From: a virus
Length of the DNA: 45,816 nt
Strand: one strand, 5' to 3'
IMG/VR virus record: IMGVR_UViG_3300008259_000283
Location: 1-45,816 of that record
The notes beneath the pieces are model-generated. The model did not search any database. It was not told the DNA's origin and saw only the letters and a program-made list of their open reading frames with translations. The translations under genes and the position numbers were made by a program. Every line of letters starts with the position of its first letter. Within the stretch, counting starts at the first letter, position 1. This document shows positions 4,576 to 29,188 of the stretch, one piece after another.

Positions 4576-4580
4576 TCTGA

Positions 4581-4588
4581 TATTTATC
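4581..4588 (+). promoter_or_regulatory. Phage-type TATTTATC box
   Basis: TATTTATC, 11 bases before the ATG at 4600, followed by nine A residues. Confidence 0.5.
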
Positions 4589-4599
4589 AAAAAAAAATT

Positions 4600-10799: not shown

Positions 10800-10804
10800 A
10801 AAAA

Positions 10805-10828
10805 AAAGTCCGAATTACTTCGGACTTT
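10805..10828. terminator. Bidirectional hairpin terminator
   Basis: AAAGTCCGAA, loop TTAC, TTCGGACTTT: a 10-base-pair stem flanked by A and T runs, between convergent genes ending at 10799 and 10851. Confidence 0.85.
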
Positions 10829-10850
10829 GATGATTCGTTAACAATCAGAA

Positions 10851-11009
10851 TTACTGAATAGTTTGAGTGGAATCAGTTGCTACTGCTGTAGTATCTACAG
10901 TTTCAGTAGTTTCTTCAACAACGGTTTCTTCGACAGTTGTTTCCTCTGTGGTTTCTTGACAAGAAACGAGGGCGGTGGCGATTAAAGCCAAGAAAAGAAT
11001 GTTTTTCAT
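10851..11009 (-). CDS. Small Glu/Thr-rich lipoprotein
   Basis: A 52-residue protein from the ATG at 11007-11009; a longer frame to 11072 exists but starts outside the signal peptide. The N-terminus MKNILFLALIATALVSC is a classic lipoprotein signal with the lipidated Cys at 17, followed by a tail made almost only of Glu, Thr and Val (EETTEETTVEETVVEETTE). Lipoproteins of this kind are common in Flavobacteriia genomes and the gene has a host-type promoter, so it may have come from the host. A role in surface exclusion or envelope modification is possible but unproven. Confidence 0.75.
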   Translation of the reverse strand: MKNILFLALIATALVSCQETTEETTVEETVVEETTETVDTTAVATDSTQTIQ

Positions 11010-11030
11010 AAATTTGTTTTGTTTATGATG

Positions 11031-11061
11031 TAAATATACACTTGAAGTTATAAATGTCAAA
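11031..11061 (-). promoter_or_regulatory. Host-type promoter of the small lipoprotein
   Basis: On the minus strand TTTG (11058-11061), 19 bases, TATATTTA (11031-11038), 21 bases before the ATG at 11009. Confidence 0.65.
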
Positions 11062-11159
11062 CAAATGTCCAAAAAAATAGTTACTTTTTTTTTGAAGTGT
11101 ATACTTTTTTAGACATTTATTTTTTTTTTTAGATATTTTGAATATTTACAAGTATACGA

Positions 11160-11167
11160 TATTTATG
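11160..11167 (+). promoter_or_regulatory. Phage-type TATTTATG box
   Basis: TATTTATG, 3 bases before the ATG at 11171; it also contains an alternative in-frame ATG at 11165. Confidence 0.45.
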
Positions 11168-11170
11168 TTT

Positions 11171-11473
11171 ATGGATAATTTAAAGAGAACTTTAAGAGAG
11201 AATCTTAAGAGACATCTAAGAGAACAAAACACCAAGAAAAAAACAGAGGTACAAGTCCCTGAAAATTGTTTCGGTGGTCCGAAAACTTATGCTGGAGGAC
11301 TTGTGGCTCTTATTCAACTTTTAATGAAAGATAATGACAGAGAAGCTAAATTAGCTGTTGAAGACTTTAAACAATTTTTAAAGGGAAGTTCTAAAATTGA
11401 TGGGAAAGTAGTGGTTCAAATTCTACAAAAGCACGGAAAGAACCAGTATATTTCTTTTGCTGGTTGTTTCTAA
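11171..11473 (+). CDS. Small leader-bearing protein, likely virion protein
   Basis: A 100-residue protein. Residues 1-18 are a basic amphipathic helix (MDNLKRTLRENLKRHLRE) ending HLRE|QN, the same form as the putative prohead-protease leader on other genes. The remainder has FGGPKTYAGGLVALIQLLM and a helical domain ending ISFAGCF. I do not recognise the family. The start at 11171 is preferred over 11138 (TTG) and 11165 (ATG) because of the TATTTATG box. The perfect palindrome just after the stop is the likely terminator. Confidence 0.7.
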   Translation: MDNLKRTLRENLKRHLREQNTKKKTEVQVPENCFGGPKTYAGGLVALIQLLMKDNDREAKLAVEDFKQFLKGSSKIDGKVVVQILQKHGKNQYISFAGCF

Positions 11474-11479
11474 AACAAA

Positions 11480-11503
11480 AAACCCATCGAATTCGATGGG
11501 TTT
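11480..11503. terminator. Palindromic terminator shared by the gene and the tmRNA
   Basis: A 24-base perfect palindrome (AAACCCATCGAA and its complement, centre GAATTC) followed by T residues on the plus strand. It lies between the 3' ends of the leader-bearing gene and the minus-strand tmRNA and could serve both. Confidence 0.8.
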
Positions 11504-11509
11504 AGATTG

Positions 11510-11910
11510 TGGAGCTAGGTGGATTCGAACCACCGTCCTGTGAATTACTTCACGAGAGGCCTACATGATTATTCGATTATTCATAACCGACAAATAGTTG
11601 GTTCTTATTTACCATCATTACCAACAACTATGGGAGATTCACTTAAATCGGTAGAACCTCCAACAAGACCTTTATTCCTTTTTGGGTAGAAACCACACCG
11701 TAAGGACTTCTGTTGCAAGGTACTTAGTCCATAACCCCTGGTGATTGTCTCAATTAAGCTACAACCGCGACATCAGACTTCAAGAGTCCGATAGCCTCCA
11801 TGTTTGCGAAAACATCGCCATTTGATTGTTTGAACCAGTTTTTTCGAGGTTAATTCAGCCCCGTCATGCCCTCTCAGATCCATTGAAACCAGTCGATTCC
11901 TGTTAGCCCC
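11510..11910 (-). ncRNA. ssrA: Transfer-messenger RNA (tmRNA)
   Basis: A single-piece tmRNA of about 401 nt on the minus strand. The 5' end GGGGCTA (11904-11910) pairs fully with TAGCTCC (11511-11517) as the acceptor stem. The T arm GGTGGTTCGAATCCACC sits just inside the 3' end. The 5' part has the tRNA-like opening GGGGCTAACAGGAATCGACTGG. A short tag frame ends at a TAA at 11754-11756. CCA is not encoded. tmRNA frees stalled ribosomes and adds a degradation tag, acting with SmpB, which would have to come from the host or from elsewhere in the phage. A TATTTATA box ends 7 bases before the 5' end. Pseudoknots were not modelled. Confidence 0.92.
11754..11807 (-). other. Candidate tmRNA tag-peptide frame
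   Basis: Reading from GCA at 11805-11807, in the context TCGCAAAC as in E. coli, the frame gives ANMEAIGLLKSDVAVVA then TAA: 17 residues. It ends in Val-Val-Ala, a plausible ClpX/ClpC-type degron, but differs from the short GENNYALAA-type tag usual in Bacteroidota. The resume codon is inferred; a start at an upstream GGC would add four residues. Confidence 0.55.
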
Positions 11911-11917
11911 GAGTGAA

Positions 11918-11925
11918 TATAAATA
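11918..11925 (-). promoter_or_regulatory. Phage-type TATTTATA box before the tmRNA
   Basis: Sense-strand TATTTATA ends 7 bases before the first base of the tmRNA acceptor stem, the distance expected if it is a -10 element. Confidence 0.6.
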
Positions 11926-11936
11926 TACGGAAAAAA

Positions 11937-11967
11937 ATTGAAATGTCAAATTCGTTTACTATATTTG
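11937..11967 (+). promoter_or_regulatory. Host-type promoter of the peptidase gene
   Basis: ATTG (11937-11940), 19 bases, TATATTTG (11960-11967), 7 bases before the ATG at 11975. This is a textbook Bacteroidota promoter with a very short leader. Confidence 0.75.
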
Positions 11968-11974
11968 TCTTATT

Positions 11975-12793
11975 ATGGAATATAGAAATTATGACTTGTT
12001 GAAAACTCTTTTGACAGTTCCCACAAAAACCTATCAAGAAGATTTGATGATTGAGTTTTTAGACAATTATTTGACCGAACAGAATATTCCCCACTATGTG
12101 GATGATTATGGAAATGTTTATGCGACTAAAACCTCCGAAAGGTTTAATGATGAAATTTTCCCTTGTGTGATTTCTCATACAGACACAGTACATCAACTTG
12201 GGGATGAAATCATTGTTGAAGAGTTCATCGGTAAAGATAGACAACAGAGATCCAAAACTTGTTTAAAAGCTGTAAACGCACTTGGTAAACCAACTGGGAT
12301 CGGCGGTGACGACAAATGTGGAATTTTTGGTGCACTTACTATGTTGTTAGATTTACCACACGTCAAAGCGGCTTTTTTTGTTAGTGAAGAAACTGGATGT
12401 CACGGTTCAAAAAATAGTGATCCAGAATTTTTTAAAAATGTTGGATACACTATTCAACTAGATGCTCCAGAAAATTATATGATTTCCGAAGTTTGTAGTG
12501 GTGTAAGATTGTTCGATAGAAAATCAGAATTTTTTTCCAAGGTAAATCCAATTATTTCTGAAATGATGATCGATGCGGAATATATGTATCATCCATATAC
12601 TGATGTTTCTCAAATGGTTCTAAAACACGGACTGGCATCTATTAACATTTCTTGTGGGTATTACAATTACCACACCAAAAACGAGTATATTGTCTTAGAT
12701 GATCTTTACAACTCAATTGAAGTTGTAAAACGAATGATCGAGTCACTAGGATATGAAACTCATCAAATGAAACCAAAAGGACACCGATGGTAA
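11975..12793 (+). CDS. M20/M42-like zinc aminopeptidase
   Basis: A 272-residue protein with a dinuclear-zinc peptidase core: SHTDTVH (His68, Asp70), GIGGDDKCGIFGAL (bridging Asp112 or Asp113), FVSEETGCHGS (catalytic Glu138, ligand Glu139), QLDAP (Asp163) and YYNYHTKNE (His233). This order is that of the M20/M28/M42 clan (peptidase T-like), which releases amino acids from short peptides or dipeptides. It is shorter than typical M20 enzymes (about 400 residues), probably because the dimerisation lid is missing or reduced. It lies between the tmRNA and clpC, with its own host-type promoter. Peptide clean-up after Clp degradation is an attractive inference. Confidence 0.85.
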   Translation: MEYRNYDLLKTLLTVPTKTYQEDLMIEFLDNYLTEQNIPHYVDDYGNVYATKTSERFNDEIFPCVISHTDTVHQLGDEIIVEEFIGKDRQQRSKTCLKAVNALGKPTGIGGDDKCGIFGALTMLLDLPHVKAAFFVSEETGCHGSKNSDPEFFKNVGYTIQLDAPENYMISEVCSGVRLFDRKSEFFSKVNPIISEMMIDAEYMYHPYTDVSQMVLKHGLASINISCGYYNYHTKNEYIVLDDLYNSIEVVKRMIESLGYETHQMKPKGHRW

Positions 12794-12796
12794 AAA

Positions 12797-12820
12797 AAAA
12801 GGGGACTTAAGTCCCCTTTT
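12797..12820. terminator. Bidirectional palindromic terminator
   Basis: AAAAGGGGACTT and its exact complement form a perfect 12-base-pair stem between the convergent peptidase and clpC genes. Confidence 0.85.
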
Positions 12821-14816
12821 TTGTTGATATCTTGATTTCTTCATCTTTGTAGGATAAATAATAATTTTTACCCTCCACGATATCGCCTGACAAGTATTTT
12901 TCGGATACCAAATCTTCGATCTTTTCTTGGATTGCTCTTTTGATAGGTCGTGCCCCATAGGTTTCATCGAATCCAATTTCGGCAATATGTGCAATAACTG
13001 AGTCTTGACAATTGATATTGATTTTCAAACCTTTGAGACGACTTGTAAGTTTAGTAACTTCAATTTTTACAATCTCTTTCACTTCTTCTTTACCAAGGGA
13101 ATTAAAAACAATCACATCATCAATTCGGTTGAGAAATTCAGGTTGAAAATATTTTTTCATTTCAGATTGAAGAATTGATTTTTTCTTTTCTTCTTCAGCA
13201 TACCTACTCGTAGTAAATCCGATACCAGTACCAAAATCTTGAATTTTTTTGATACCAATATTTGATGTCATAATGATCAAACAATTTTTGAAACTGATTT
13301 TTCTACCTAGACCATCGGTGATATGTCCTTCATCTAACATTTGAAGAAGTGTGTGAAAAATATCTTTGTTGGCTTTTTCAATCTCATCAAATAAGACAAG
13401 TGAATATGGTTTGGCTTTGACCTGTTCGGTAAGTTGTCCACCTTGATCGTAACCAACATAACCAGGGGGTGCACCAATAAGTCTAGACACATTGTGTTTT
13501 TCTTGATATTCACTCATATCTACACGAATTAAAGCGTCAGGTGAACCAAAGATTTGTTCGGCTAGTTGTTTCGCCAAATGTGTTTTTCCAGTTCCTGTAC
13601 CACCTAAGAAGATGTAACTACCAATAGGTTTATTGGGATCTTTGAACTTCAATCGGTTTCTACGAATTGACTTTGAGATTTTGGTAATCGCTTCGTTCTG
13701 TCCGATTACTTTTTTTGACAACTCACTTTCAAGATTGGACAAATTATTTTTATCATCCAAGGTCAAACGATTCAAAGGTATTTTTGTCATATTTGATACA
13801 ACATCCAAAACAACATCAACATCAATTGGACGTTTGTTCATCAAAAGTTCTTGTTCGAACTTATTTTTTTCGACTTCAAGTTTATCAAGAATTTTCTTTT
13901 CTGCATCCCTCAAATCAGCAGCTTTTTCGTAGTCTTGTTTTTTTACAACATCCAACTTTTGTTTTTTGATTTCAACCGCTTTGGCTTTAAGATTCTCAAT
14001 GATTGGTGGTGCTTTGATATCAATTTGTGATTTAGACCCAACTTCATCCAAAATATCGAACGCTTTATCTGGAAACTCTCTGTCTGTGATATAACGATCA
14101 GCCAAATTCACACAAAGCTCTAATACTTCATCAGAATATGTGACTTTGTGAAAATCCTCATACCTTGACTTAGATTGTTTGATGATTTGAAGTGTTTCTG
14201 ATTTTGACGGAGGATCCACGACAACTTTTTGAAATCTTCGTTCAAGAGCACCATCTTTCTCAATGTTTTGTCTGTATTCATCAAAAGTTGTCGCGCCAAT
14301 ACAATGAATTTCACCGCGAGATAAAGCTGGTTTGAATATGTTTGACGCATCCATACTTCCTGAAGAATTTCCAGCACCTACCATAGTGTGAATTTCATCA
14401 ATGAAAATAATCACGTCAGGATTTTCAGCAATCTCCTCAATAATTGCTTTCATACGTTCTTCAAATTGTCCACGATACTTTGTCCCAGCAACGATAGATG
14501 TTAAATCTAAATTGACAATTCTTTTGTCTCGTAGATTTCTCGGACACTTACCCTCGTGAATTTGGATGGCCAATCCTTCTACAATTGAAGTTTTACCAGC
14601 ACCCGGTTCACCGATAATAATTGCATTATTTTTTTTCCTCCGAGAAAGAATTTGAGCAATTCGAGTAATCTCTGATTCACGACCAACAACAGGGTCTAGT
14701 TTACCTTCTGATGCAAGTTTGTTTAAGTCCCGACTGAAATTATCCAATACAGGCGTGCCACCACTTTTTTTACGAATGTCTTGATCCTTTTCGTTTTCGT
14801 CCATTGATTCAATCAT
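12807..14816 (-). CDS. clpC: ClpC-type AAA+ unfoldase without N-domain
   Basis: A 669-residue double-ring ATPase. NBD1: Walker A GEPGAGKT (69-76), Walker B IIFIDE (136-141). A short UVR-type middle segment (KKQDYEKAADLRDAEK, about 292-307) marks it as ClpC rather than ClpB. NBD2: GGTGTGKT (405-412), LVLFDE (473-478), pore motif PPGYVGYD, and a GIGF loop (531-534) where ClpP-binding loops lie. The usual N-terminal Clp repeat domain (about 150 residues) is absent; the protein starts just before the D1 domain. It should unfold proteins and could feed host ClpP. The ATG at 14814-14816 is chosen; 14804 is an alternative and 14873 falls upstream of the promoter -7 box. Confidence 0.93.
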   Translation of the reverse strand: MIESMDENEKDQDIRKKSGGTPVLDNFSRDLNKLASEGKLDPVVGRESEITRIAQILSRRKKNNAIIIGEPGAGKTSIVEGLAIQIHEGKCPRNLRDKRIVNLDLTSIVAGTKYRGQFEERMKAIIEEIAENPDVIIFIDEIHTMVGAGNSSGSMDASNIFKPALSRGEIHCIGATTFDEYRQNIEKDGALERRFQKVVVDPPSKSETLQIIKQSKSRYEDFHKVTYSDEVLELCVNLADRYITDREFPDKAFDILDEVGSKSQIDIKAPPIIENLKAKAVEIKKQKLDVVKKQDYEKAADLRDAEKKILDKLEVEKNKFEQELLMNKRPIDVDVVLDVVSNMTKIPLNRLTLDDKNNLSNLESELSKKVIGQNEAITKISKSIRRNRLKFKDPNKPIGSYIFLGGTGTGKTHLAKQLAEQIFGSPDALIRVDMSEYQEKHNVSRLIGAPPGYVGYDQGGQLTEQVKAKPYSLVLFDEIEKANKDIFHTLLQMLDEGHITDGLGRKISFKNCLIIMTSNIGIKKIQDFGTGIGFTTSRYAEEEKKKSILQSEMKKYFQPEFLNRIDDVIVFNSLGKEEVKEIVKIEVTKLTSRLKGLKININCQDSVIAHIAEIGFDETYGARPIKRAIQEKIEDLVSEKYLSGDIVEGKNYYLSYKDEEIKISTKKGT

Positions 14817-14832
14817 TTTCTTTAATTTTTTA

Positions 14833-14864
14833 CAAATATAGTGAACTATTGATAAAAAAACAAT
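14833..14864 (-). promoter_or_regulatory. Host-type promoter of clpC
   Basis: On the minus strand ATTG (14861-14864), 20 bases, TATATTTG (14833-14840), 16 bases before the ATG at 14816. Confidence 0.7.
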
Positions 14865-14904
14865 CTTTGTCAAATTGTCAGTAAAATAAATTTTTAAGTG
14901 TCAT

Positions 14905-14937
14905 ATTGACTGATTTTTTTTGTTGGTATATTATTTG
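14905..14937 (+). promoter_or_regulatory. Weak host-type promoter of dnaK
   Basis: ATTG (14905-14908), 20 bases, TATTATTTG (14929-14937). The -7 box has one extra base between TA and TTTG, so this is a weaker match than the others. Confidence 0.4.
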
Positions 14938-14974
14938 TTTGTGTTAATGTAAAATAAAACAAAAAAACAAAGTT

Positions 14975-16846
14975 ATGAATAAAAATGTTATTATCGGTAT
15001 CGACTTAGGTACCACAAACTCAGCGGTGGCAATTATTGAAGGTGGACAACCTATCGTTGTTGCCAATTCAGAAGGTAAAAGAACGACCCCGTCGATTGTT
15101 GCTTTCACTGATAAAGACAGGAAAGTTGGTGATCCCGCTAAAAGACAAGCGGTGACTAATCCTGAAAAAACAGTTTACTCAATAAAAAGATTTATTGGTA
15201 AAAATTTTGATAATTGTAAATCTGAATCAAAGAAAGTTCCTTATAAAACAACAAAAATTTCAAACGGTTTAGTTGGTGTAAAAATTGATGAAAAAACATA
15301 TACACCACAAGAAATTTCGGCAACTATTTTACAGAAAATGAAAAAAACAGCTGAAGATTATTTGGGATATGAAGTGACAAGAGCCGTTATTACAGTACCT
15401 GCCTATTTCGGTGATCAAGAAAGAAACGCAACGATTGAGGCTGGTGAGATTGCTGGTCTAAAAGTTGAAAGAATTATCAATGAACCAACGGCAGCGGCAT
15501 TAGCATATGGTTTGGACAAAAAATCTAAAGACTCAAAAATATTGGTATTTGACTGTGGTGGTGGTACACATGATGTGTCCATATTAGAAATCGGGGATGG
15601 AATTTTTGAAGTAAAATCAACAGATGGTGATACACATTTAGGTGGTGATGATTTTGATAACGCAATCATCAATTGGATGACATCTGAATTTCAAACAGAA
15701 TATGGTATTGATCTCTCAAAAGATCCAATGGCACTTCAGAGAATTAGGGAGGCGGCTGAAAAAGCGAAAATTGAATTATCATCATCTTCAAGTAGTGAAA
15801 TTAATTTACCTTACATCACAGCTCGTGAAAATGTTCCAGTTCACTTTGTTAAATCATTATCGAGGAGTAAGTTTGAACAATTAACAAAAGAATTAGTCGA
15901 CAGAACAATTGCTTGTGCAAAAAAAGCACTCAAAAACGCTAAGTTGAAACCATCCGACATAGATGAAGTAGTATTAGTCGGAGGATCTACCAGAATTCCA
16001 GCTATTCAAGAAGCGGTTGAAAATTTCATCGGTAAAAAAGCAAACAAATCAGTAAATCCCGACGAAGTTGTTGCATTAGGCGCCGCAATCCAAGGTGCGG
16101 TTCTTACTGGAGATATGAATGATGTACTTCTTTTAGATGTTATTCCATTGTCATTCGGTATTGAGACTATGGGTGGTGTAATGACAAAAATCATTGAAGC
16201 AAACACGACTATCCCAATCAAAAAACAACAAACATTCTCAACAGCCGTTGATAATCAACCGACCGTAGATATTCACGTACTACAAGGTGAAAGACCAATG
16301 GCGAACGATAATAGATCTTTGGGTAGATTTTTCTTGGAAGGTATTACACCAGCACCGAGAGGTGTCCCACAAATCGAAGTCACAATTGATATTGATGCGA
16401 ATGGAGTTCTTCACGTTACAGCCAAAGATCAAGCGTCTGGTAAGGAAAACAAAATTAGAATTGAAGGTGGTTCTTCATTAACATCAGAAGAAATTGAAAG
16501 AATGAAACGTGAGGCTCAAGAAAATTTGGAACAAGACAAATTAGCCCAACAAAGAGTTGAATTATTCAATCAATGTGACACCCAAATTTTCAACACCAAG
16601 AAAAATATGGAAGATTGGAAAGATAAATTTACTGAATATCAATCTAGTAAATTAAACGAATGTCTCAAAAATTTGGAAGACGCATATTCCGAACGAAATG
16701 AGGAAAAGTGTAAAGAATACTCAGAAAAACTCAATCAAGTTTTCACCGAAGTTTCGAATGAAATTTACTCAACAATGAAACCAGAAAATGATATGAATGT
16801 TTCAAATGACGTTCAAGATATTGAATACACTGAGATAGAAAAGTAA
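14975..16846 (+). CDS. dnaK: Hsp70 chaperone DnaK, full length
   Basis: A 623-residue protein close to the normal DnaK length. The ATPase domain has [13 protein letters not shown] (8-20), [28 protein letters not shown] and [14 protein letters not shown], where most DnaK proteins have DLGGGTFDVS; then [17 protein letters not shown]. The linker [10 protein letters not shown] leads to a complete substrate-binding domain ([19 protein letters not shown]) and a helical lid, ending DIEYTEIEK. It should bind exposed hydrophobic stretches and fold or hold proteins with DnaJ and GrpE, neither of which is in this window. It is divergent from clpC across 158 bases. Completeness suggests relatively recent capture from a host and retained function. 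Confidence 0.96.
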
Positions 16847-16854
16847 CTTGTGTA

Positions 16855-16862
16855 TATTTATA
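16855..16862 (+). promoter_or_regulatory. Phage-type TATTTATA box upstream of a hairpin
   Basis: TATTTATA begins 8 bases after the dnaK stop codon. Unlike the other boxes it is separated from its gene (ATG at 16907) by a terminator-like hairpin. Confidence 0.45.
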
Positions 16863-16863
16863 G

Positions 16864-16894
16864 AAGACCGACCCCTAAAAAAGGTCGGTCTTTT
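16864..16894 (+). terminator. dnaK terminator hairpin
   Basis: AAGACCGACC (16864-16873) and GGTCGGTCTT (16883-16892) pair over 10 bases and are followed by T residues. It ends dnaK transcription but also falls in the leader of the next gene. Confidence 0.85.
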
Positions 16895-16906
16895 AATTTT
16901 GAAACT

Positions 16907-17152
16907 ATGGCAATATCAAAACAAACAATCGAGGGAACAAAAATTATAAATGAACTACAATCAAGTAATCTAGTAAGAACGGAATACGACACTAGTGATA
17001 GTAGTTTGATTGTCGAATTCAAGAATGGAACTAAATATTCTTACGAAAACGTCCCTCACAAAATCTATGCTCAGTTCAGACTAGCCGAGTCCCAAGGAAA
17101 TTTTTTCAACACAAAAATTGCAAAAGTGTTCAAATACAAAAAACTGACTTGA
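16907..17152 (+). CDS. KTSC domain protein
   Basis: An 81-residue protein starting at the ATG after the hairpin; an upstream GTG at 16850 would put the terminator inside the gene and is rejected. The KTSC signature is complete: SSNLVRTEYDTSDSSLIVEF, NGTKYSYENVPHKIYAQF, then GNFFNTKI. KTSC domains are about 60-70 residues, frequent in phages and also fused to lysyl-tRNA synthetase; their role is unknown, possibly nucleic-acid binding. The N-terminal 20 residues are an extra helix. Confidence 0.85.
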   Translation: MAISKQTIEGTKIINELQSSNLVRTEYDTSDSSLIVEFKNGTKYSYENVPHKIYAQFRLAESQGNFFNTKIAKVFKYKKLT

Positions 17153-17157
17153 TAATA

Positions 17158-17165
17158 TATTTATC
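17158..17165 (+). promoter_or_regulatory. Phage-type TATTTATC box
   Basis: TATTTATC, 4 bases before the ATG at 17170. Confidence 0.5.
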
Positions 17166-17169
17166 GTGA

Positions 17170-17904
17170 ATGGAAGGTTACCAAGAAATACTCAAATCTT
17201 TTGAAACAAGAGACATACTCAATGGTGAGATATGGAATGATGTATTCTCGGACAACCCAAAATTGAAACCCCAAATTAGAAAAATTTTATTAAAAATAGC
17301 ATCTGAGTTTCAAGGTTACTTGGGTGATGATATTTTTATTTCAGATGTAAGATTTACAGGTTCTCTAGCTAATTATAATTGGTCTAAGTTTTCAGATATT
17401 GATTTACATTGTATTGTAGATTTTGAACAATTCAATCCATCGGAGAGAGAATTATACAAAGAACTTTTCAATTTAAAAAAAACACTTTTTAATGAAAATC
17501 ATAACATAAGAGTTAAAGGTTATGAAGTTGAATTGTATGCTGAGGATATTACAGAAAAACACGTGTCATCGGGTGTCTATTCAGTCCTATTTAATGATTG
17601 GATTAATCAACCAATAAAGAAAAAAGTTAATATAGATAAGAAATTTTTCTTGAAGAAGGCTGATACAATGATGGATAGAATAGATAATCTGATGATTGAT
17701 GTAAGAGATTTAGATATTGATACTGCATTAACCAAAATAAAAGATTTTAACGACAAACTCAAAAAATACAGAAAATCTGGACTAGACAGAGGTGGTGAAC
17801 TTTCATATGAAAATATGATATTCAAGTTTTTAAGACGAAATGGATACTTAGAAAAACTTTTCACATTCAAAAATGAGTTGATGGATAGAAAACTTTCACT
17901 CTGA
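17170..17904 (+). CDS. Nucleotidyltransferase-fold protein
   Basis: A 244-residue protein with the polymerase-beta type nucleotidyltransferase signature: FTGSLANYNWSKFSDIDLHCIVDF (about residues 58-80), that is GSxA followed by the metal-binding D-x-D, and a third acidic strand VELYAED near 122-128. The remainder is helical. Enzymes of this superfamily add nucleotides to RNA, proteins or small molecules, or make cyclic oligonucleotides; no partner domain shows which. Related proteins are common in large T4-like phages near structural genes. No antitoxin (HEPN) partner is adjacent. Confidence 0.8.
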   Translation: MEGYQEILKSFETRDILNGEIWNDVFSDNPKLKPQIRKILLKIASEFQGYLGDDIFISDVRFTGSLANYNWSKFSDIDLHCIVDFEQFNPSERELYKELFNLKKTLFNENHNIRVKGYEVELYAEDITEKHVSSGVYSVLFNDWINQPIKKKVNIDKKFFLKKADTMMDRIDNLMIDVRDLDIDTALTKIKDFNDKLKKYRKSGLDRGGELSYENMIFKFLRRNGYLEKLFTFKNELMDRKLSL

Positions 17905-17938
17905 TTATCAAGAAAACCAATTATTTAACATTTCAGTA

Positions 17939-17946
17939 TATTTATA
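17939..17946 (+). promoter_or_regulatory. Phage-type TATTTATA box
   Basis: TATTTATA, 12 bases before the ATG at 17959, with an A-rich spacer. Confidence 0.5.
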
Positions 17947-17958
17947 ACATAAAAAACT

Positions 17959-18147
17959 ATGGAAGGAGCATTCAGCGCAGGCACAGAATATTTTGAGTGT
18001 AGAGAATGTTATAGTAGTACAGGATGTACTTGTACATCTCTAACTCAAAAAACATTACCACATCCTATTTGGTCATCCAATCGAGAAGTTGCTATAATCC
18101 AACTAGGTATGGTTCAGTTGGGCGGTATGCACGGTTTAAATTCATAA
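17959..18147 (+). CDS. Small Cys-rich protein
   Basis: A 62-residue protein with a compact cysteine cluster CRECYSSTGCTC (about 14-25), that is CxxC and CxC, which could bind zinc. The C-terminal half is hydrophobic (REVAIIQLGMVQLGGMHG). I do not recognise it. It is the first gene after a TATTTATA box at the head of the morphogenesis block, 23 bases before the next gene, so it is probably made late. Confidence 0.55.
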   Translation: MEGAFSAGTEYFECRECYSSTGCTCTSLTQKTLPHPIWSSNREVAIIQLGMVQLGGMHGLNS

Positions 18148-18170
18148 AAAAAAACTAAAAAAATAATAAA

Positions 18171-19328
18171 ATGGCAGATCTAAAACCTATTGGAAGTGAA
18201 AAATTAACAGGTGAATCTAAAATCAAAAGAATTCTAGAAATTTCTCGTTACAAAGAAAACATTCCAAATAATATTAATGAAACCACAAGAACTGAATACA
18301 GTAAAGTTCTATCCGATGGAAAAGAATATGAAATTGTTAAAGAAAAAATGGGATATGTAATCAAAAAAAGGGTAGATGAATCCTATGATTACATTGAACC
18401 TATGAAAAATAGAAAACATTACAATTCATATTCCGCAGCTTTGAAGCGTTTAAATTTGATAGCTAAAGAAGTCAATAGACTATCGGAAAACGAAGAAGAA
18501 ACACCTTTATTCAATTTGGGTGAACAAAAAAGATTTACACTAAAAACCCCAAAACCACAATTACCTCCACCAGCACCAGCCACAGATCAACCAGTCGCAT
18601 CAAGTGAAATGCCAGTTCCGATGGGAGATGTAACTTCAGCTGATGATATGCCACCTGTTGATATGAGTCAAAATATGGGAAGTGAAGAAACACCTATGCC
18701 TGATATGGGTAGTGAAATGCCCGATATGGGTGGTGGAAAAGAAGAGGTTACTTTTCGTACAATTCAAAAATTAACAGGCAAATTAGGTCAAAAACTTAGA
18801 ATGTTAGATGATACTATATCGAAATTAGAGGACGAAGATCGTGAAGATATTTTGGCTAAGTTTGAAGAAGATTATGATGAGGATATGATGGGTTCTGAAG
18901 ATATGGGTTCTGAAGATATGGGTGATCAAATTGATGTTGACACCGAAGTTGATATTGAAGAACCTACTATGGCCGCACCCAAAGAAGAATTCGATGAAGA
19001 AACTGAAGAGGGAATGATTCGAAAAAAAATTGGATCAATTATGGACTCAGTTTTCACAGAATCTGAAGTTGAAAAACTTTTATCTCAATATTATCGTGTA
19101 AATGAAAACGAGAAAAAGTTGAAAGAAAAAAGGGTAAGTGAATATAGAAAAGTAGTTTTGAATCAAGTAAAACAACTTGCTGAAACAAAAAAACAACAAG
19201 ATAGTGCTGAGTTCATTATAACCGAAACTAAAGGATTTAAATTCAAAGGTAAAACAAATCTTAAAAACTTAGTTTTTGAAAATAATGGTGAAATTTTAAA
19301 AATCGATTTAGATGGACAATTTCTATGA
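18171..19328 (+). CDS. Acidic structural or assembly protein
   Basis: A 385-residue protein. N-terminal 110 residues form a basic helical domain ending LFNLGE|QKRF, again an x-x-E-Q site (near residue 119). A Pro/Met/Asp-rich low-complexity middle (MPDMGSEMPDMGG) follows, then FRTIQKLTGKLGQKLRMLDD, a motif I associate with conserved proteins of T4-like environmental phages. After an acidic stretch with repeated MGSED, the C-terminus is a long helix and a short basic strand domain. Function unknown; position directly upstream of the terminase group and shared site suggest a head or neck component. Confidence 0.7.
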   Translation: MADLKPIGSEKLTGESKIKRILEISRYKENIPNNINETTRTEYSKVLSDGKEYEIVKEKMGYVIKKRVDESYDYIEPMKNRKHYNSYSAALKRLNLIAKEVNRLSENEEETPLFNLGEQKRFTLKTPKPQLPPPAPATDQPVASSEMPVPMGDVTSADDMPPVDMSQNMGSEETPMPDMGSEMPDMGGGKEEVTFRTIQKLTGKLGQKLRMLDDTISKLEDEDREDILAKFEEDYDEDMMGSEDMGSEDMGDQIDVDTEVDIEEPTMAAPKEEFDEETEEGMIRKKIGSIMDSVFTESEVEKLLSQYYRVNENEKKLKEKRVSEYRKVVLNQVKQLAETKKQQDSAEFIITETKGFKFKGKTNLKNLVFENNGEILKIDLDGQFL

Positions 19329-19720
19329 GTCATTTAATTTATATCAACGGACTAGGTCCGAATTATAAAGGGGATAACATTTACGAATTTATCTTCAGTG
19401 ACTCTTTTGATGTGTGGGGTGAAAACTGGGACTCTAAACCAGCTCACGGACATCCATTACCACCTGAAATAAAATACATATCTAAAGTCGGTGTTCTACG
19501 TAACACCGAAGTCGTATTAGACTTAGTTCAAAATTCAGATTATATGGGTGTAATAGATGCGATGGAGGATATAATTGCACTTGGTTGGGAAACGGATGAT
19601 AGTTGTGGTGAAAATAAAAGATTAGTCTTCAAGTTCGGTGAACCTGAACAAAATATTAAAGATAAACTTTACGAAAGAGATATCGTATTGGAATTTGAAA
19701 AACAAATGTCTTATGTCTAA
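19325..19720 (+). CDS. Conserved phage protein, function unknown
   Basis: A 131-residue protein with IYINGLGPNYKGDNIYEFIFSDSFDVWGENWDSKPA, a strikingly conserved opening in my memory of T4-like environmental phages, then LPPEIKYISKVGVL and a C-terminal half pairing an Asp/Glu-rich helix with VFKFGE. It overlaps the previous gene by 4 bases (ATGA) and the next by 8 bases, so it is translationally coupled inside the operon. No function is known to me. Confidence 0.75.
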   Translation: MSHLIYINGLGPNYKGDNIYEFIFSDSFDVWGENWDSKPAHGHPLPPEIKYISKVGVLRNTEVVLDLVQNSDYMGVIDAMEDIIALGWETDDSCGENKRLVFKFGEPEQNIKDKLYERDIVLEFEKQMSYV

Positions 19721-20531
19721 AATTAAAATTAACAAGTTAGTAAAAGCGGGACTAAGTAGAAATATGGTTTCACAATTGTCCGAAAGAGAAATGGATGTTT
19801 TAATTCAAAAATTTATTTTGAATGAACAAACAACTATGGTTCCAGCAAGAGATCAGGCGACAATTAAAAAGTTGAAAGATCAGAAAAAAATATTTGCGGT
19901 TTATGAAAAAGAAGTTACTGAGGATGAGGAAGATCCTATGAACTTTGAGAAAGGAGAAAGAACTCAAGATCCTCACCAAGTTGGACCATCGTCAGATGAT
20001 GGTTTTGGTGATTACGGGGATGGTATGGATGAAGGTGAAATGACTGAAAAAACCCAAAAGAAAAATCCTTGGGCAATTTGTACCGCCACGATGGGTAAAA
20101 AATTTGGTACAACAGAAAGAAGCGATTGGTCTAAAAGACAGATGAAAGAATATGAAAGATGTGTAATGGATGTTAAAAAACAAATCAAAGAAAATAAGAA
20201 TCCAATACTTCCGATTTTAGAAAATATAACTAGGAAACAGATTGAAACCAATTTGTTACCTCAAATGGATAAAGCCTCGTTAATTGAGATGATTACCAAG
20301 AACCAGTCTATTGTCAAAAGACCACTCTATAATTCACTCGACAATAAAACAAAAAAAATGGACAAACCAATTGGAAAAATGTTTTCAATTACCAAGGAAG
20401 AACTTGAAAGTGAAGTTGGAGAGATGGAAAAAACAGAGGGAAAAACACGCGAGTTATCACCTAACCCTGGTAAAACGAAAATCCCTGATTACTTAACTTT
20501 TGATCAACTTAATATTAAATTTAAAAAGTAA
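19713..20531 (+). CDS. Leader-bearing probable virion protein
   Basis: A 272-residue protein from the ATG at 19713 (an earlier TTG-type start at 19638 lies deep in the previous gene). Residues 1-38 are a helical leader ending ILNE|QT. A charged linker leads to NPWAICTATMGKKFG...WSKRQMKEYERCVMDVKKQI, the NPWAICTA...YERCVxxVK module seen in many phage proteins, with two conserved Cys. The C-terminal half is helical with another acidic patch. Function unknown; the leader suggests packaging into the head. Confidence 0.7.
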   Translation: MSKIKINKLVKAGLSRNMVSQLSEREMDVLIQKFILNEQTTMVPARDQATIKKLKDQKKIFAVYEKEVTEDEEDPMNFEKGERTQDPHQVGPSSDDGFGDYGDGMDEGEMTEKTQKKNPWAICTATMGKKFGTTERSDWSKRQMKEYERCVMDVKKQIKENKNPILPILENITRKQIETNLLPQMDKASLIEMITKNQSIVKRPLYNSLDNKTKKMDKPIGKMFSITKEELESEVGEMEKTEGKTRELSPNPGKTKIPDYLTFDQLNIKFKK

Positions 20532-21781
20532 TGTTAAAGAAAAAATTTATTCAAGAAGCACCAATTGACTATGGTGATAGACCAGAAAGAATGGATCCTG
20601 GTATGCAAAGGAAAATAGAAACTGGACAAACCCCTATTTCAAAACAACCTTTTATGCCCAAAATAACAGGGCCACAAACTTTTGAGGAAGTTATCGCATC
20701 CGAAAGATTTAAACAAGTAATTGAAAACATTCGTAGGTATGCTGATCTACCAGGTCCAGTTGATATGCGAAATATTGGTCAATTACAGATGTTATTAATG
20801 TCAGCACTACGTGAGATTGTAGGAATTGAAAGACAACACAAAGAATATTTAGAAAACTTGTCAATTGAGTTGGTAAGAAAAGAGTTGGAAATAGCCCCCT
20901 CAGAAATAGAGTATGAATCTTATTTGGTTAGTCCTGGTGATATTTCCAACGAAGGTTTTCAAATGAAACCTGAAGAGAAATCCGCAGAAGAAATAGCAAA
21001 ATTATTTCAATCTCCAGAAACGGAAGAGACTGAAGAAGAAAATCCAGTCGAAGCTTTACTCAAAGCCTTAGATGATTTCAATATCGAGAGAAGTAAGAGA
21101 AGATTGATTAATATGTTTATTCAAGGGGCTGGAGCTAAAGCCCAGTATATGTATCATTTGATTGAGGAAAAATTAAATGAACTAAATCCAAGATTATTAA
21201 ATTTATATGGAACATTAATGTCCATCAATGAAATGCTTTATTGGATATTAAGTGAAAATATGTTAGAAAATTTGATGGGTAGTAAAGCAGGTTCTGTGGA
21301 GGTTGATACAAATCAAGACCCCCCGAAAGTTATCGCCAAAGGTGTCATTTTTCCAGTATTACTACACGAGTTGGTGAAAGGAACATATGAAGTTATTGGA
21401 AAATTTGGTCTTCCATCAAATCCTGAAAAACAAAAAATGATTACAGGATACGAGGATACACTTCCTGCTGAAGTTTGGGATTTAAGATTCGGACCAGTAT
21501 TTTGGGAAAGATTGATCAGTGTATATCCTGATAGAATCTTTGAACCAGGTCAAAGATTCATACAAAATTACTTGTTTCAAAAGTTTGTTATGATGACACC
21601 CGAAGAATTTATTAATCTTACAAAAATGATTCTTTTGGGTAATCCTAAGGCAAATCAAATTTTGGACAGAATGGTAAAAGAAATAGCTGAAAGATTAAGA
21701 GAATTGGAAAATCAAGCTAGTGAGGAAGATGAGGACGATGGATTGGGTGATATTAATATTGATGATATCTTCAATCGATAA
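20531..21781 (+). CDS. Conserved phage structural protein upstream of terminase
   Basis: A 416-residue protein starting on the last base of the previous stop. Its N-terminus MLKKKFIQE|AP carries a very short version of the leader with an I-x-E-A type site. The core contains ERSKRRLINMFIQGAGAKAQY, LNPRLLNLYGTLMSINEMLYW, GVIFPVLLHELVKGTYE and LPAEVWDLRFGPVFWE, conserved in my memory among T4-like environmental phages. Together these suggest a folded helical domain of a virion or assembly factor. The C-terminus is acidic. Function unknown; no ATPase or nuclease motif. Confidence 0.75.
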   Translation: MLKKKFIQEAPIDYGDRPERMDPGMQRKIETGQTPISKQPFMPKITGPQTFEEVIASERFKQVIENIRRYADLPGPVDMRNIGQLQMLLMSALREIVGIERQHKEYLENLSIELVRKELEIAPSEIEYESYLVSPGDISNEGFQMKPEEKSAEEIAKLFQSPETEETEEENPVEALLKALDDFNIERSKRRLINMFIQGAGAKAQYMYHLIEEKLNELNPRLLNLYGTLMSINEMLYWILSENMLENLMGSKAGSVEVDTNQDPPKVIAKGVIFPVLLHELVKGTYEVIGKFGLPSNPEKQKMITGYEDTLPAEVWDLRFGPVFWERLISVYPDRIFEPGQRFIQNYLFQKFVMMTPEEFINLTKMILLGNPKANQILDRMVKEIAERLRELENQASEEDEDDGLGDINIDDIFNR

Positions 21782-21791
21782 CTGAAATGAA

Positions 21792-23561
21792 ATGGGATTT
21801 ACAAAAGAACAACTTTTACTTGAGTACACCAAGTGCGTTAGAAATACCGAATATGCTTTAAAAACATATTTGCAAACTTACGATAACACACAATCAAAGT
21901 ATGTCCCTCTAGAACTTTTTCCAGATCAAGTAACTCTTATTAATGATTACGAAGAACACAACGAAAACATAGCAAAAAAATATAGACAAGCTGGTGTATC
22001 TACCGTGACTGCCGCTTGGATCAGTAAAAAATTAGCATTTGCGCTCAAAAACAAACCTGAAAAGGTTTTGTGTATTGCGAATAAATTAGATACTGCGGTT
22101 GAATTTGCTAATAAAGTAAGAGGATTTATTGATCAATGGCCAAATTGGGTAGGTGTTACGTATAGTAATGAAAAAAACTCACAAAGACACTTTAAAATTT
22201 CTAACGGATGTGAAGTCAAAGCGGTTGCTACGTCTAAGGATGCTTTGAGAGGTTATACACCAACAATTCTTATTTTTGATGAGGCAGCATACATTGAAGC
22301 GGATAGTGATTTCTGGGCGGCTTGTATGGCCTCATTGTCTACTGGTGGTAAAGTAATTGTTATTTCAACACCCAACGGATATGACCCGATTTATTACGAA
22401 ATATATGATCAATCTTTACGAGGAATCAATGATTTCAAAATAACTGAAATGTTTTGGTGGAGAGATCCAAGATATACCAAAGATTTACAATTTTTGAAAG
22501 TAGATGACCTCATTCACTTCTATCTCAACAGAGACGAATATCCAGATTTGGAAATTGTAGATTTTTCTGAAACCTTACCATCAGATCGTGACTATGGTGA
22601 GATACAAAAATTAATTGAGACTGGATACAAACCAACTTCAAATTGGTTTGAAAAAATGGTCAAAAAATTAAAGTATGATAAAAGAAAAGTAGCTCAAGAG
22701 TTAGAATGTAATTTTTTGGGATCTGGTGATAATGTATTTGATTCTAATTTGGTTCAAAAAATATTGGAAAATGATGTAAAAGATCCAGTGAATAAAATGG
22801 TTAGTGGTGGTTTGTGGTTATGGAAAGAACCGATTTTGGGACACAGATACATAATGGGAGTTGACGTAAGTAGGGGTGATAGTGAGGATTTTTCAACTTT
22901 CCAAATTTTTGATTTTGATGACAAAGAACAAGCAGTTGAATATTTGGGAAAACTACCACCTGATAATTTGGCGGATATAGTTTATAAGTGGGCAACAATG
23001 TACAAAGCATTTGTTGTTATTGATATTACTGGTGGTATGGGTGTGTCAACTGCAAGAAAACTTCAAGAACTCGGTTACAAAGATCTTTATGTCGATGGTA
23101 TGGATATTGCTAACAAATGGAAATTCGATCCAAAAATGCAAGACAAAATACCAGGGATTAATTTCAATAATAAAAGAGTACAGATTATCTCAGCTTTAGA
23201 AGAATACTTTCGTCACGGTTTAAAGATACATTCAATTCGTCTTATAAATGAAATGAACACATTTGTTTATATCAATGGTCGTCCAGATCATATGAAAGGA
23301 CAACACGACGATTTAATTATGTCACTTGCTATGGCGGTGTACGTTGCTGATTACTCATTCACTCAGCTACAAAAAGTATCACAACAAGCAAAAGTCTTAC
23401 TAGAATCTTGGGAAGTAAAAACATATGAACAACCCTCGTCCCAACACTTTAATCCAGCATTACCAAATACAAATTATAAAGAAAATCCAGCGTTTAGAAA
23501 CCAACCATCAAGAGCTGACTACGAACAGTATTCTTGGTTGTTTGGTGGCGGTAAGCGTTGA
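21792..23561 (+). CDS. terL: Terminase large subunit (T4 gp17 type)
   Basis: A 589-residue packaging motor with both domains. ATPase: Walker A variant RQAGVST (65-71), Walker B TILIFDE (158-164), coupling motif ISTPNG (191-196). Nuclease (RNase H fold): DVSRGDSEDFS (358-368), VIDITGGMG (409-417) and HDDLIMSLA (504-512), supplying the three acidic positions. It pumps DNA into the prohead through the portal and cuts the concatemer at headful, as T4-type terminases do. It is followed at once by the portal gene. No small subunit was recognised in the window. Confidence 0.95.
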   Translation: MGFTKEQLLLEYTKCVRNTEYALKTYLQTYDNTQSKYVPLELFPDQVTLINDYEEHNENIAKKYRQAGVSTVTAAWISKKLAFALKNKPEKVLCIANKLDTAVEFANKVRGFIDQWPNWVGVTYSNEKNSQRHFKISNGCEVKAVATSKDALRGYTPTILIFDEAAYIEADSDFWAACMASLSTGGKVIVISTPNGYDPIYYEIYDQSLRGINDFKITEMFWWRDPRYTKDLQFLKVDDLIHFYLNRDEYPDLEIVDFSETLPSDRDYGEIQKLIETGYKPTSNWFEKMVKKLKYDKRKVAQELECNFLGSGDNVFDSNLVQKILENDVKDPVNKMVSGGLWLWKEPILGHRYIMGVDVSRGDSEDFSTFQIFDFDDKEQAVEYLGKLPPDNLADIVYKWATMYKAFVVIDITGGMGVSTARKLQELGYKDLYVDGMDIANKWKFDPKMQDKIPGINFNNKRVQIISALEEYFRHGLKIHSIRLINEMNTFVYINGRPDHMKGQHDDLIMSLAMAVYVADYSFTQLQKVSQQAKVLLESWEVKTYEQPSSQHFNPALPNTNYKENPAFRNQPSRADYEQYSWLFGGGKR

Positions 23562-23575
23562 TTTATAAAGCGAAA

Positions 23576-23583
23576 TATTTATT
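23576..23583 (+). promoter_or_regulatory. Phage-type TATTTATT box
   Basis: TATTTATT, 8 bases before the portal ATG at 23592. Confidence 0.5.
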
Positions 23584-23591
23584 GTTAAAAG

Positions 23592-23960
23592 ATGGAAGAT
23601 AAAAATCTAACAATATGGCAAAGGTTATCTCAATCCTTGGGACCGAACTCACTTTTAGGTCAAGATATACCCACTTACAAGTTTGATAAAAAAGAGTTAC
23701 TCAGAACACAAAGTAAAGATGAGTATGAAAAACAAAAACTTCAAGCACAACAAACTTACTATCTAGTAAGTCAATGGGCTAAAGTTGAAAATAACTTATA
23801 CAACCAAGCAGTATACTATGAACCTACTAGATTAGCATCATACTATGATTTCGAAAGTATGGAATATTCGTTAAGTTCTGAAACACTCATAGCAACACCT
23901 GATGGTTTTATAACTATAAAAGACCTTGCAGATAAAGGTATGATGATGGATCACATATAA
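23592..23960 (+). CDS. Portal protein N-extein plus intein block A
   Basis: A 122-residue frame. The first 92 residues are the N-terminal arm of a T4 gp20-type portal (TRLASYYDFESMEY). At 23868 the sequence switches to an intein N-terminus: Ser1, then LSSETLIATPDGFITIKDL, a normal block A. The frame stops 30 residues into the intein (TAA 23958-23960), in the middle of what should be the splicing domain. The rest of the intein and the portal continue in the -1 frame. As written, no full portal can be made without recoding, trans-splicing or a sequence correction. See the intein entry and finding. Confidence 0.8.
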   Translation: MEDKNLTIWQRLSQSLGPNSLLGQDIPTYKFDKKELLRTQSKDEYEKQKLQAQQTYYLVSQWAKVENNLYNQAVYYEPTRLASYYDFESMEYSLSSETLIATPDGFITIKDLADKGMMMDHI

Positions 23961-24715
23961 TCGCAACTTATGGTCACAGATTTTTGAAACGCGATGGTGT
24001 TTTCGAGGTTGTTGAGAATTTGAAACCGGGTGATTCTATGATGCCATTTTATCGTAAATCATTTTATGATAATCAAAATTATAATTGGGTATATGTATGT
24101 AATTCTAATGAAGGACATCACGGATGGGTTTCTGAACACAAATTAATTGCTGAATGGTATTACAACACTAAAGTTAGTACTGACGAGGAAGTTCATCACA
24201 AAGATTTTAATGGTAAAAATAATAACCCTGAAAATTTACAAATTATGAATATTTCAGAACACAGGGCTTACCACAGGAAATTGAATAATGAAAAACTTTG
24301 GGCTAATCCAGAGTATAGGGAAAAAATGTCAATTGTTGCTAAAAGAAAAGGAAAATTGAGTTGGAATGGAAGAAGAGCTGGGGTAAAGAATCCAGCTTAT
24401 TTTCATATACCATACGACTTGATAGTTCAAAAAGCAACTGAACATAAAACTTTAATGGGAACAGCGAACGCTCTTAAGGTTTCATATAAAAAATTACAAA
24501 GAGAAATAACCTATGCTGGTTATAAAGATTGGAGTACTTTTTGTTTTGCTTATGGTATTGAAAGATCAAAATACTCAACAGCCAAAGTTAAAGGTGATAG
24601 TTATGTGTTCAACCATAAAATTGTAAGTATTGAACCACATGGAGTTGTACCAGTATATGATTTGAGTGTACCTGGATATAAAAACTTTGCTACTGACACC
24701 ATATTTTCCCATAAC
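23868..24715 (+). other. Intein with HNH homing endonuclease in the portal gene
   Basis: Block A begins at Ser1 (23868). Block B, SHIIATYGHRF...VENLKPGD, starts near 23951 in the -1 frame. An HNH nuclease sits inside: LIAEWYYN, VHHKDFNGKNNNPENLQIM and SEHRAYH (about 24130-24280). The end is block F/G, VPVYDLSVPGYKNFATD then SHN at 24715, with Thr as +1 residue. The portal motif continues as TPEIASALDTYAEES. Between blocks A and B, where about 40-50 residues are usual, there are almost none and the frame changes. The homing nuclease appears intact. Confidence 0.8.
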
Positions 24716-26278
24716 ACACCAGAAATTGCGTCTGCGTTGGACACATACGCTGAAGAATCAACAACAGTTGATGAAAATGGTTTTATGTTACAGATTTATT
24801 CTGATTCACCCAGAATTAAATCAATTCTAGCAGATTTATTTAATAATGCTCTAGACATCAACACAAACTTACCTATGTGGACACGTAATACAGCAAAATA
24901 TGGTGACAATTTTGTGTTTTTAAAACTAGACCCTGAAAAAGGTGTTGTTGGCTGTTTACAACTCCCAAATATTGAAATAGAAAGGATTGAGGTTGGAATG
25001 AAAGGACGGGCAACATCAGGATTCGGTGCTGCACAAGCTTCGAATGCTGACACAAAAAGTCTAACATTCACTTGGAAAAACAAACAATTGGATTTTAATA
25101 GTTGGGAAATAGCACACTTCAGATTGTTGGGGGATGATCGTAAATTACCTTACGGAACTGCTATGACAGAAAAAGCTAGGAGGATTTGGAAACAATTGGT
25201 ACTGGCTGAAGATGCAATGCTTGTTTATAGAACATCTAGAGCACCTGAGAGAAGAGTATTCAAAGTTTACGTAGGTAATATGGACGATGCCGATGTTTAC
25301 CCATATGTCCAAAGATTTGCACAACAGTTCAAAAAAGATCAGATTGCTGACCCGAAAACAGGAAATGTTGATATGAGGTTCAACCAAATGGCGGTAGACC
25401 AAGATTTTTTCATACCTGTTCGTGATCCAGCAGCACCAACACCGATTGATACATTGGCTGGTGCTCAAAACCTATCAGAAATTGCGGATATAGAATATAT
25501 TCAGAAAAAACTTTTAACCGCACTTAGAATTCCTAAAGCATTTTTAGGTTTTGAAGAACCCGTGGGTGATGGGAAGAATTTGTCGTTACAGGATATCCGA
25601 TTTGCAAGAACTATCAATAGAATTCAAAAGTGTATGATTGCCGAACTAAATAAAATTGCAATTATACACTTGTTTCTACTTGGGTTTGAAGATGAATTAG
25701 GTTCATTTCAATTATCACTTACTAATCCATCCAAACAAGCTGATTTACTTGCGGTAGAAGTTTGGAAAGAAAAAATGTTGTTGTATAGAGATGCGGTTAC
25801 AAAAATTGAAGGGATTGCCCCAGTATCGGTAGCTTGGGCTAAAAAACACGTTCTTGGGTTTTCGGACGATGAAATCAAACTTGATTTACAACAACAGAGA
25901 ATGGAAATGGCGGTTGCCGCAGAACTCACAAACACACCTAATGTTATTAACAGAACTGGTTTATTTGATAACATTGATAAGTTATATGGAAAACAAACAT
26001 TGAGTGGTGAAACTTCTACGTCAGAAACCGCACCTATGGGTGGAGCAGAACCTTTACCACCAATAGGTGGTGATATGGGAAGTCCTCAACCTGATTTTGG
26101 TGGCGGAGGGTTACCACCCGCACCAGAAGAACCTACGTTAGCTCCAGAGAGTAGGAAAAAAACACCAAATATAATTTTGGAAAGAATGCAAATTGATACT
26201 ATAGATGACATTGATTTCAGTAAAGGTGAAAAAATACTGAACTCAATTCAAAATGAACTAGACAAATTATCGGATTGA
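23936..26278 (+). CDS. Intein C-part with HNH, then portal protein C-extein
   Basis: This frame is open from 23936 (after a TAA at 23933-23935) and has no ATG before 24036; the first non-ATG start is a TTG at 23984, which would already have lost block B. After the intein ends at 24715, about 520 residues of portal follow: PEIASALDTYAEES, MWTRNTAKYGDNFVF, HFRLLGDD, YGTAMTEKARRIWKQL, EDAMLVYRTSRAPERRVF, and KLLTALRIPKAFLGFEE. This is a gp20-type portal, the dodecamer through which DNA enters and leaves the head. Total extein length, about 612 residues, is normal. The tail is Pro/Gly-rich and acidic. Confidence 0.9.
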   Translation, partial: RYDDGSHIIATYGHRFLKRDGVFEVVENLKPGDSMMPFYRKSFYDNQNYNWVYVCNSNEGHHGWVSEHKLIAEWYYNTKVSTDEEVHHKDFNGKNNNPENLQIMNISEHRAYHRKLNNEKLWANPEYREKMSIVAKRKGKLSWNGRRAGVKNPAYFHIPYDLIVQKATEHKTLMGTANALKVSYKKLQREITYAGYKDWSTFCFAYGIERSKYSTAKVKGDSYVFNHKIVSIEPHGVVPVYDLSVPGYKNFATDTIFSHNTPEIASALDTYAEESTTVDENGFMLQIYSDSPRIKSILADLFNNALDINTNLPMWTRNTAKYGDNFVFLKLDPEKGVVGCLQLPNIEIERIEVGMKGRATSGFGAAQASNADTKSLTFTWKNKQLDFNSWEIAHFRLLGDDRKLPYGTAMTEKARRIWKQLVLAEDAMLVYRTSRAPERRVFKVYVGNMDDADVYPYVQRFAQQFKKDQIADPKTGNVDMRFNQMAVDQDFFIPVRDPAAPTPIDTLAGAQNLSEIADIEYIQKKLLTALRIPKAFLGFEEPVGDGKNLSLQDIRFARTINRIQKCMIAELNKIAIIHLFLLGFEDELGSFQLSLTNPSKQADLLAVEVWKEKMLLYRDAVTKIEGIAPVSVAWAKKHVLGFSDDEIKLDLQQQRMEMAVAAELTNTPNVINRTGLFDNIDKLYGKQTLSGETSTSETAPMGGAEPLPPIGGDMGSPQPDFGGGGLPPAPEEPTLAPESRKKTPNIILERMQIDTIDDIDFSKGEKILNSIQNELDKLSD

Positions 26279-28828: not shown

Positions 28829-29188
28829 ATGGCAGACAAAAAGTCATTAGTAGAGGAAGCACTTCTTCAGATGAAAAATCTTGAAGATGTTGTTACTGAA
28901 AACGCAAAAGGAATACTTGCTTCGACTATGAAGGAAGAAATCTCTGAGTTGGTAAAAGAGTCTTTGAAAAAGAAGACTAAAAATAAATTAAAAGAACAAG
29001 ACGAACCAGATATGGATTCTGAGGAAGAAATGGATATGGATTCTGAAGAAGAAATGGATATGGATTCTGAGGAAGAAATGGATATGGATTCTGAGGAAGA
29101 AATGGATATGGGTACTGAGGAATTTGACATTGATGTAGAAGATGATGTGGTTGAAATACCAGACAATGCCCGAAACTATGTCCGATAG
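28829..29188 (+). CDS. Scaffold-like acidic protein, first frame
   Basis: A 119-residue protein. The first 56 residues are a helical domain (LVEEALLQMKNLEDVV) ending KLKE|QD, a candidate protease site. Four copies of MDSEEEMD follow, then EFDIDVEDDVVEIPD. Position after the protease and before the capsid gene, helical plus acidic composition, and L-x-E sites all fit a gp22-type core scaffold. The stop comes 23 bases into the next frame, which continues with further scaffold-like sequence, so the two may be one protein interrupted by a +1 shift. Starts at 28730 or 28808 are less likely because they fall in the terminator or box. Confidence 0.7.
   Translation: MADKKSLVEEALLQMKNLEDVVTENAKGILASTMKEEISELVKESLKKKTKNKLKEQDEPDMDSEEEMDMDSEEEMDMDSEEEMDMDSEEEMDMGTEEFDIDVEDDVVEIPDNARNYVR
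29009..29104 (+). repeat. Tandem 24-base repeat, four copies
   Basis: The unit GATATGGATTCTGAGGAAGA plus AATG occurs four times with one silent G/A change (copy 2), encoding DMDSEEEM. A fifth, degenerate copy follows at 29105. It is coding, in frame, and likely to vary in copy number. Confidence 0.9.

What the first reader, a model, noticed from the sequence alone, without database searches (positions are those of the whole stretch)
23868..24715. Portal intein with HNH nuclease, broken between blocks A and B
Block A (Ser1...GFITIKDL) is in frame 0 and stops after 30 intein residues. Block B, the HNH nuclease and the terminal SHN|T are in the -1 frame, which has no ATG before block B. About 40-50 residues that normally separate A and B are missing. 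The portal is essential, so the sequence as written cannot be the whole story. Possibilities: an assembly or population deletion, recoding, or an atypically split intein; natural split inteins with N-parts of only about 16-25 residues are known in phage genes, and this break falls at the same place, but here the C-part lacks a start codon.
Basis: partly seen in the sequence, partly recalled or inferred. Interest (0 to 1): 0.72.

Follow-up and report, generated by a model that had tools for sequence, protein, structure and literature searches.

The report
Phage portal intein with internal deletion
A phage capsid-portal gene carries an ordinary self-splicing protein insert (intein) from which 112 bases are missing in this one sequence; about 80 related copies are intact there, so this is a damaged copy or an assembly artefact and not a new way of splitting a gene.

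Summary
A T4-type portal gene (gp20, PF07230) holds an HNH-endonuclease intein (Ser1...SHN|T). The reading frame breaks between splicing blocks A and B, at 23940/23941. Relatives explain the break. Three contigs about 87-91% identical in DNA (L002, L004, L005) carry the same intein intact (320 aa, one ORF). Against them the window lacks exactly 112 bp, intein codons 25-62 (37 codons plus one base), hence the frameshift. In all 75 measurable contigs of a wider survey, intein residue 1 and the GDSMMPF motif are exactly 91 residues apart; only the window differs. [quoted passage not shown] The missing segment is not elsewhere in the window. There is no slippery site and no start codon before block B. 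The downstream frame is stop-free with dN/dS about 0.055, as low as between intact relatives, so the lesion is very recent or exists only in the assembly. A split intein or recoding is very unlikely. Raw reads are needed to tell an assembly error from a real defective genome.

The parts
23592..23867 (+). Portal (gp20-like) N-extein, 92 aa, ending MEY
   Evidence: Aligned to intein-free portals, in which MEY runs straight into TPEIA
23868..23940 (+). Intein N-terminal remnant: codons 1-24 (Ser1, block A) plus one base of codon 25
   Evidence: Gap-free alignment to intact L002/L004/L005
23940..23941 (+). Deletion junction: 112 bp present in all intact relatives are missing between these two bases; no microhomology at the ends
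23941..24715 (+). Intein C-terminal remnant (last base of codon 62, then residues 63-320; block B, HNH region, block G ending SHN), in the -1 frame
   Evidence: PF14890 E=3.6e-10 and TIGR01443 E=9.5e-6; alignment A1
24182..24265 (+). HNH_3-like nuclease motif of the intein (weak, below the curated cut-off)
   Evidence: PF13392, E=2.7e-4, 20.9 bits against a cut-off of 24.8
24716..26278 (+). Portal C-extein (Portal_T4), starting at Thr+1 (TPEIA)
   Evidence: PF07230 E=1.5e-69
21792..23561 (+). T4-type terminase large subunit, intact, directly upstream of the portal gene
   Evidence: PF03237 E=6.8e-13; no indel against L005 in 21096-23939

Best explanation
This is an ordinary, contiguous HNH-containing intein in the portal gene of a T4-type phage. 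In this contig it has lost 112 bp (intein codons 25-62), which removes core strands of the splicing domain and shifts the frame. It is a loss-of-function lesion and not a split intein: either an assembly or chimeric-read artefact, or a very recent deletion in a defective or minority genome while intact copies supply portal protein. In intact relatives the intein is translated in one frame with the portal, excises itself and joins MEY to TPEIA; the HNH domain presumably drives homing into intein-free portal alleles. Shown here: the deletion relative to relatives, the conserved intact architecture and the empty sites. Inferred: splicing and homing by the intact form, loss of splicing in the window copy, and the cause of the lesion.
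For: Three close relatives have the same intein in a single 933-aa portal ORF, and the window differs by one 112-bp gap inside 2.8 kb plus 2.1 kb of otherwise gap-free alignment. In 75 of 75 measurable contigs, residue 1 to GDSMMPF is exactly 91 residues; three more, checked by tblastn, are gap-free there. Intein-free relatives show the exact empty site. The missing segment is core fold in the alignment to 1mi8, and a smaller deletion at this position abolishes splicing in another intein (PMC13014065). Downstream intein codons have dN/dS 0.054-0.057 and no stop in 258 codons, like intact relatives (0.069), so there has been no decay since the lesion.
Against: No raw reads are available. The junction has no repeat that would explain an assembler collapse, so the artefact half of the statement is not directly supported. 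Records very near the window may be hidden from the searches, so other copies with the same lesion cannot be excluded.
Confidence: 0.95

Rival explanations
1. Sub-case A: the deletion exists only in the assembly (chimeric read, mis-join of mixed strains, or a minority allele taken into the consensus); the phage population has the intact intein.
For: The portal is essential, the neighbouring structural genes are intact, and the frame downstream of the break shows no relaxation of selection. No other record held carries the junction.
Against: No direct repeat or microhomology at the junction, so a simple repeat collapse is excluded. Read support cannot be examined.
Confidence: 0.65
2. Sub-case B: the deletion is real in the sequenced phage genomes, which are defective or helped by intact co-infecting genomes.
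For: A blunt 112-bp deletion with no repeat at its ends is what a genuine random deletion could look like.
Against: A portal-null phage cannot persist by itself; no other copy was found, although near-identical records may be hidden.
Confidence: 0.3
3. An atypically split intein: a short N-part and a separately translated C-part splice in trans.
For: The N-part ends near the S2 split position of AceL and GOS TerL inteins.
Against: 37 core residues are missing from both pieces and from the whole window. The C-part has no start codon before block B. All relatives are contiguous.
Confidence: 0.02
4. Programmed -1 frameshifting or bypassing joins the two frames.
For: The two frames overlap for 22 nt (23936-23957), so a shift is geometrically possible.
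Against: No slippery heptamer in or near the overlap. Intact relatives need no shift. A shift would still give an intein that lacks 37 core residues.
Confidence: 0.01

Closest known systems
Contiguous portal-gene inteins with HNH endonuclease in related uncultured T4-type phages (IMG/VR: L002, L004, L005 and about 75 more)
   Same: Same insertion site (MEY|intein|TPEIA), same blocks, same HNH and DNA-binding modules; about 95% protein identity to the closest over shared parts
   Different: They have the 112 bp that the window lacks and read through in one frame
Natural split inteins with short N-parts (AceL-TerL 25 aa, GOS TerL, VidaL 16 aa, PolB16 OarG 15 aa; PMC13014065)
   Same: A short N-part; AceL and GOS TerL are split at the same structural position (S2)
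   Different: They divide the fold between two translated pieces; the window has lost residues outright and its C-part has no start codon before block B
Ssp DnaB mini-intein (PDB 1mi8)
   Same: Same HINT core by profile alignment, including the segment lost in the window
   Different: Mini-intein without endonuclease; complete core

Membership tests
Intein (HINT protein-splicing element) | Ser/Cys at position 1 and a C-terminal His-Asn followed by Ser/Thr/Cys | tested here: met
   Ser1 at 23868 and SHN|T at 24716 in the window; Cys1 or Ser1 in relatives
Intein (HINT protein-splicing element) | Complete splicing domain (blocks A, B, F, G with the core between) in one reading frame | tested here: not met
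   Window copy lacks codons 25-62 and is frameshifted; met by relatives
Intein (HINT protein-splicing element) | Precise insertion in a host gene with an empty site in relatives | tested here: met
   Intein-free portals run straight from MEY into TPEIA
Intein (HINT protein-splicing element) | Splicing activity | not testable with these tools
   Needs a bench assay
Naturally split intein | Two separately translated pieces that together hold the whole HINT fold | tested here: not met
   Core segment absent from the window; no start codon before block B in the C-part
T4-type portal gene (gp20) | Portal_T4 domain beside T4-type terminase, prohead protease and gp23 | tested here: met
   PF07230, PF03237, PF03420 and PF07068 matches

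The most novel reading that the evidence does not exclude
The N-part of 24-30 residues and the truncated C-part still splice (in trans, or after a -1 shift) despite the loss of 37 core residues, which would make this a new minimal split intein in an essential phage gene.
Probability: 0.02. Interest if true: 0.75.

Novelty: new member of a known kind. Interest (0 to 1): 0.14.

Why it matters
By itself it matters little: a damaged or mis-assembled copy of a conventional intein. The by-product is more useful: a widespread HNH intein, strictly conserved in length in its N-terminal splicing region, at one site in T4-type portal genes of uncultured phages, with many empty sites, suited to homing studies. 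It is also a caution that a frame break in one metagenomic contig is not evidence of a split intein.

Tried and rejected
The exact junction 28-mer was searched in IMG/VR without a hit, but records very near the window may be hidden, so this is weak. Contigs spanning the site were sought with two exact patterns; only the contigs of L002, L004 and L005 came up, all intact. Microhomology or direct repeats at the deletion ends: no microhomology and nothing longer than 6 bp. A hairpin that could promote deletion: DNA folding z = 0.44, nothing unusual. Slippery site: none. AlphaFold of the intact L002 intein gave low confidence (pLDDT 47.8); it predicts strands at 28-35, 40-52 and 55-61 inside the lost segment but is too poor to rely on. 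No similar DNA in annotated phage records; by protein, only distant matches, below 60% identity. One paper on split inteins in fractured genes was not held.

Full report
What was reported. All of this is in the sequence. ORF 23592-23960 carries 92 portal residues and 30 residues past the splice junction (the last six out of register). The -1 frame, open from 23936, runs from block B to the end of the portal at 26278 and has no ATG before block B; the first common start is TTG 23984 and the first ATG is 24038. The downstream part matches PF14890 Intein_splicing, TIGR01443 intein_Cterm and PF07230 Portal_T4.

What relatives show. A scan of IMG/VR with the C-part gave 79 loci. Three long contigs (L002, L004, L005; 61.7, 131.8 and 115.1 kb) are about 87-91% identical in DNA and have one 933-aa portal ORF with a 320-aa intein. 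Against them the window has no indel for 2,844 bp upstream, then lacks exactly 112 bp, then aligns without a gap for 2.1 kb until the variable tail of the portal gene. The 112 bp run from the second base of intein codon 25 to the second base of codon 62, that is 37 codons plus one base; this alone explains both the missing residues and the change of frame.

How constant the intact form is. With an alignment of 13 portal inteins (A1) as query, 80 loci came back. In 75 of 75 that could be measured, intein residue 1 and the GDSMMPF motif are exactly 91 residues apart; total lengths are 319-322 or 380-390 residues, with 40 distinct full sequences. Three that the text search did not resolve were checked by tblastn and are gap-free in that region. 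Many other relatives have no intein and read straight from the N-extein into TPEIA/TPEIS, which fixes the splice junctions. The survey favours high-scoring copies, and records very near the window may be hidden, so it does not prove that no other copy has the lesion.

Why the window copy should not splice. The lost residues align almost one to one with the Ssp DnaB mini-intein (PDB 1mi8), a minimal fold, so they are core. TIGR01445 (intein N-terminal splicing region) matches the intact L002 protein but not the window's N-part. In the split intein derived from Aes123 PolB1, deletion of residues 27-33 or 27-37 is tolerated but deletion to residue 42 abolishes splicing (PMC13014065); the window loses codons 25-62. 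That splicing is lost here too is an inference by analogy.

Split intein or recoding? That is right: AceL and GOS TerL inteins are split at the S2 position, after helix 1. But split inteins divide the fold; they do not lose part of it. The missing segment is not elsewhere in the window: the best tblastn match has E = 0.27, in an unrelated place. There is no slippery heptamer near the overlap. These readings are left at 1-2% each.

Age and cause. The downstream intein frame has dN/dS 0.054-0.057 against its relatives and no stop in 258 codons; two intact relatives compared with each other give 0.069. So there is no sign of decay since the deletion. The junction has no microhomology and no notable hairpin, so it is not a repeat collapse; a chimeric read, a minority allele in the consensus, or a genuine blunt deletion all remain possible. 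A very close contig, L003, begins inside the intein at window position 24552 and does not cover the site. Because the portal is essential and the structural genes around it are intact, I favour an assembly or minority-allele artefact (0.65) over a real defective genome (0.30). This split is judgement; only raw reads can decide.

Verdict. A real sequence feature, correctly described, with an ordinary explanation: a broken or mis-assembled copy of a conventional portal intein.

Noticed in passing
L073 and L079, about 4182-5251; long portal ORFs (1295-1413 aa) also in L165, L170, L194, L207, L218, L222, L232, L234, L235: Some relatives have about 1.07 kb more inside the portal gene at a second site, in frame; probably a second intein in the same gene.
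   Followed up: no
L084, L093, L211-L213, L217, L219-L232: A longer form of the same intein (380-390 aa) has an extra stretch of about 67-70 residues after the HNH region that looks like a repeated DNA-binding module.
   Followed up: no
window 12807-14873 (-) and 14975-16846 (+): This phage fragment encodes a Clp/ClpB-type AAA+ ATPase and a full-length DnaK/HSP70 (PF00012, E=6e-247). The region is collinear with relative G004 (85% identity over 10782-20064), so it is not a contig chimera. Chaperone genes of this kind are unusual in a phage, to my knowledge.
   Followed up: partly
window 29009-29122: A short acidic tandem repeat (MDSEEEMDMDSEEE...) between the prohead protease and the major capsid gene; multiple overlapping alignments suggest that copy number differs between close relatives.
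   Followed up: no
L003:1, window 24552: A contig 99.4% identical to the window over the portal begins abruptly inside the intein; 7 of its 11 differences from the window in the compared stretch lie in the last 110 bp of the intein.
   Followed up: no
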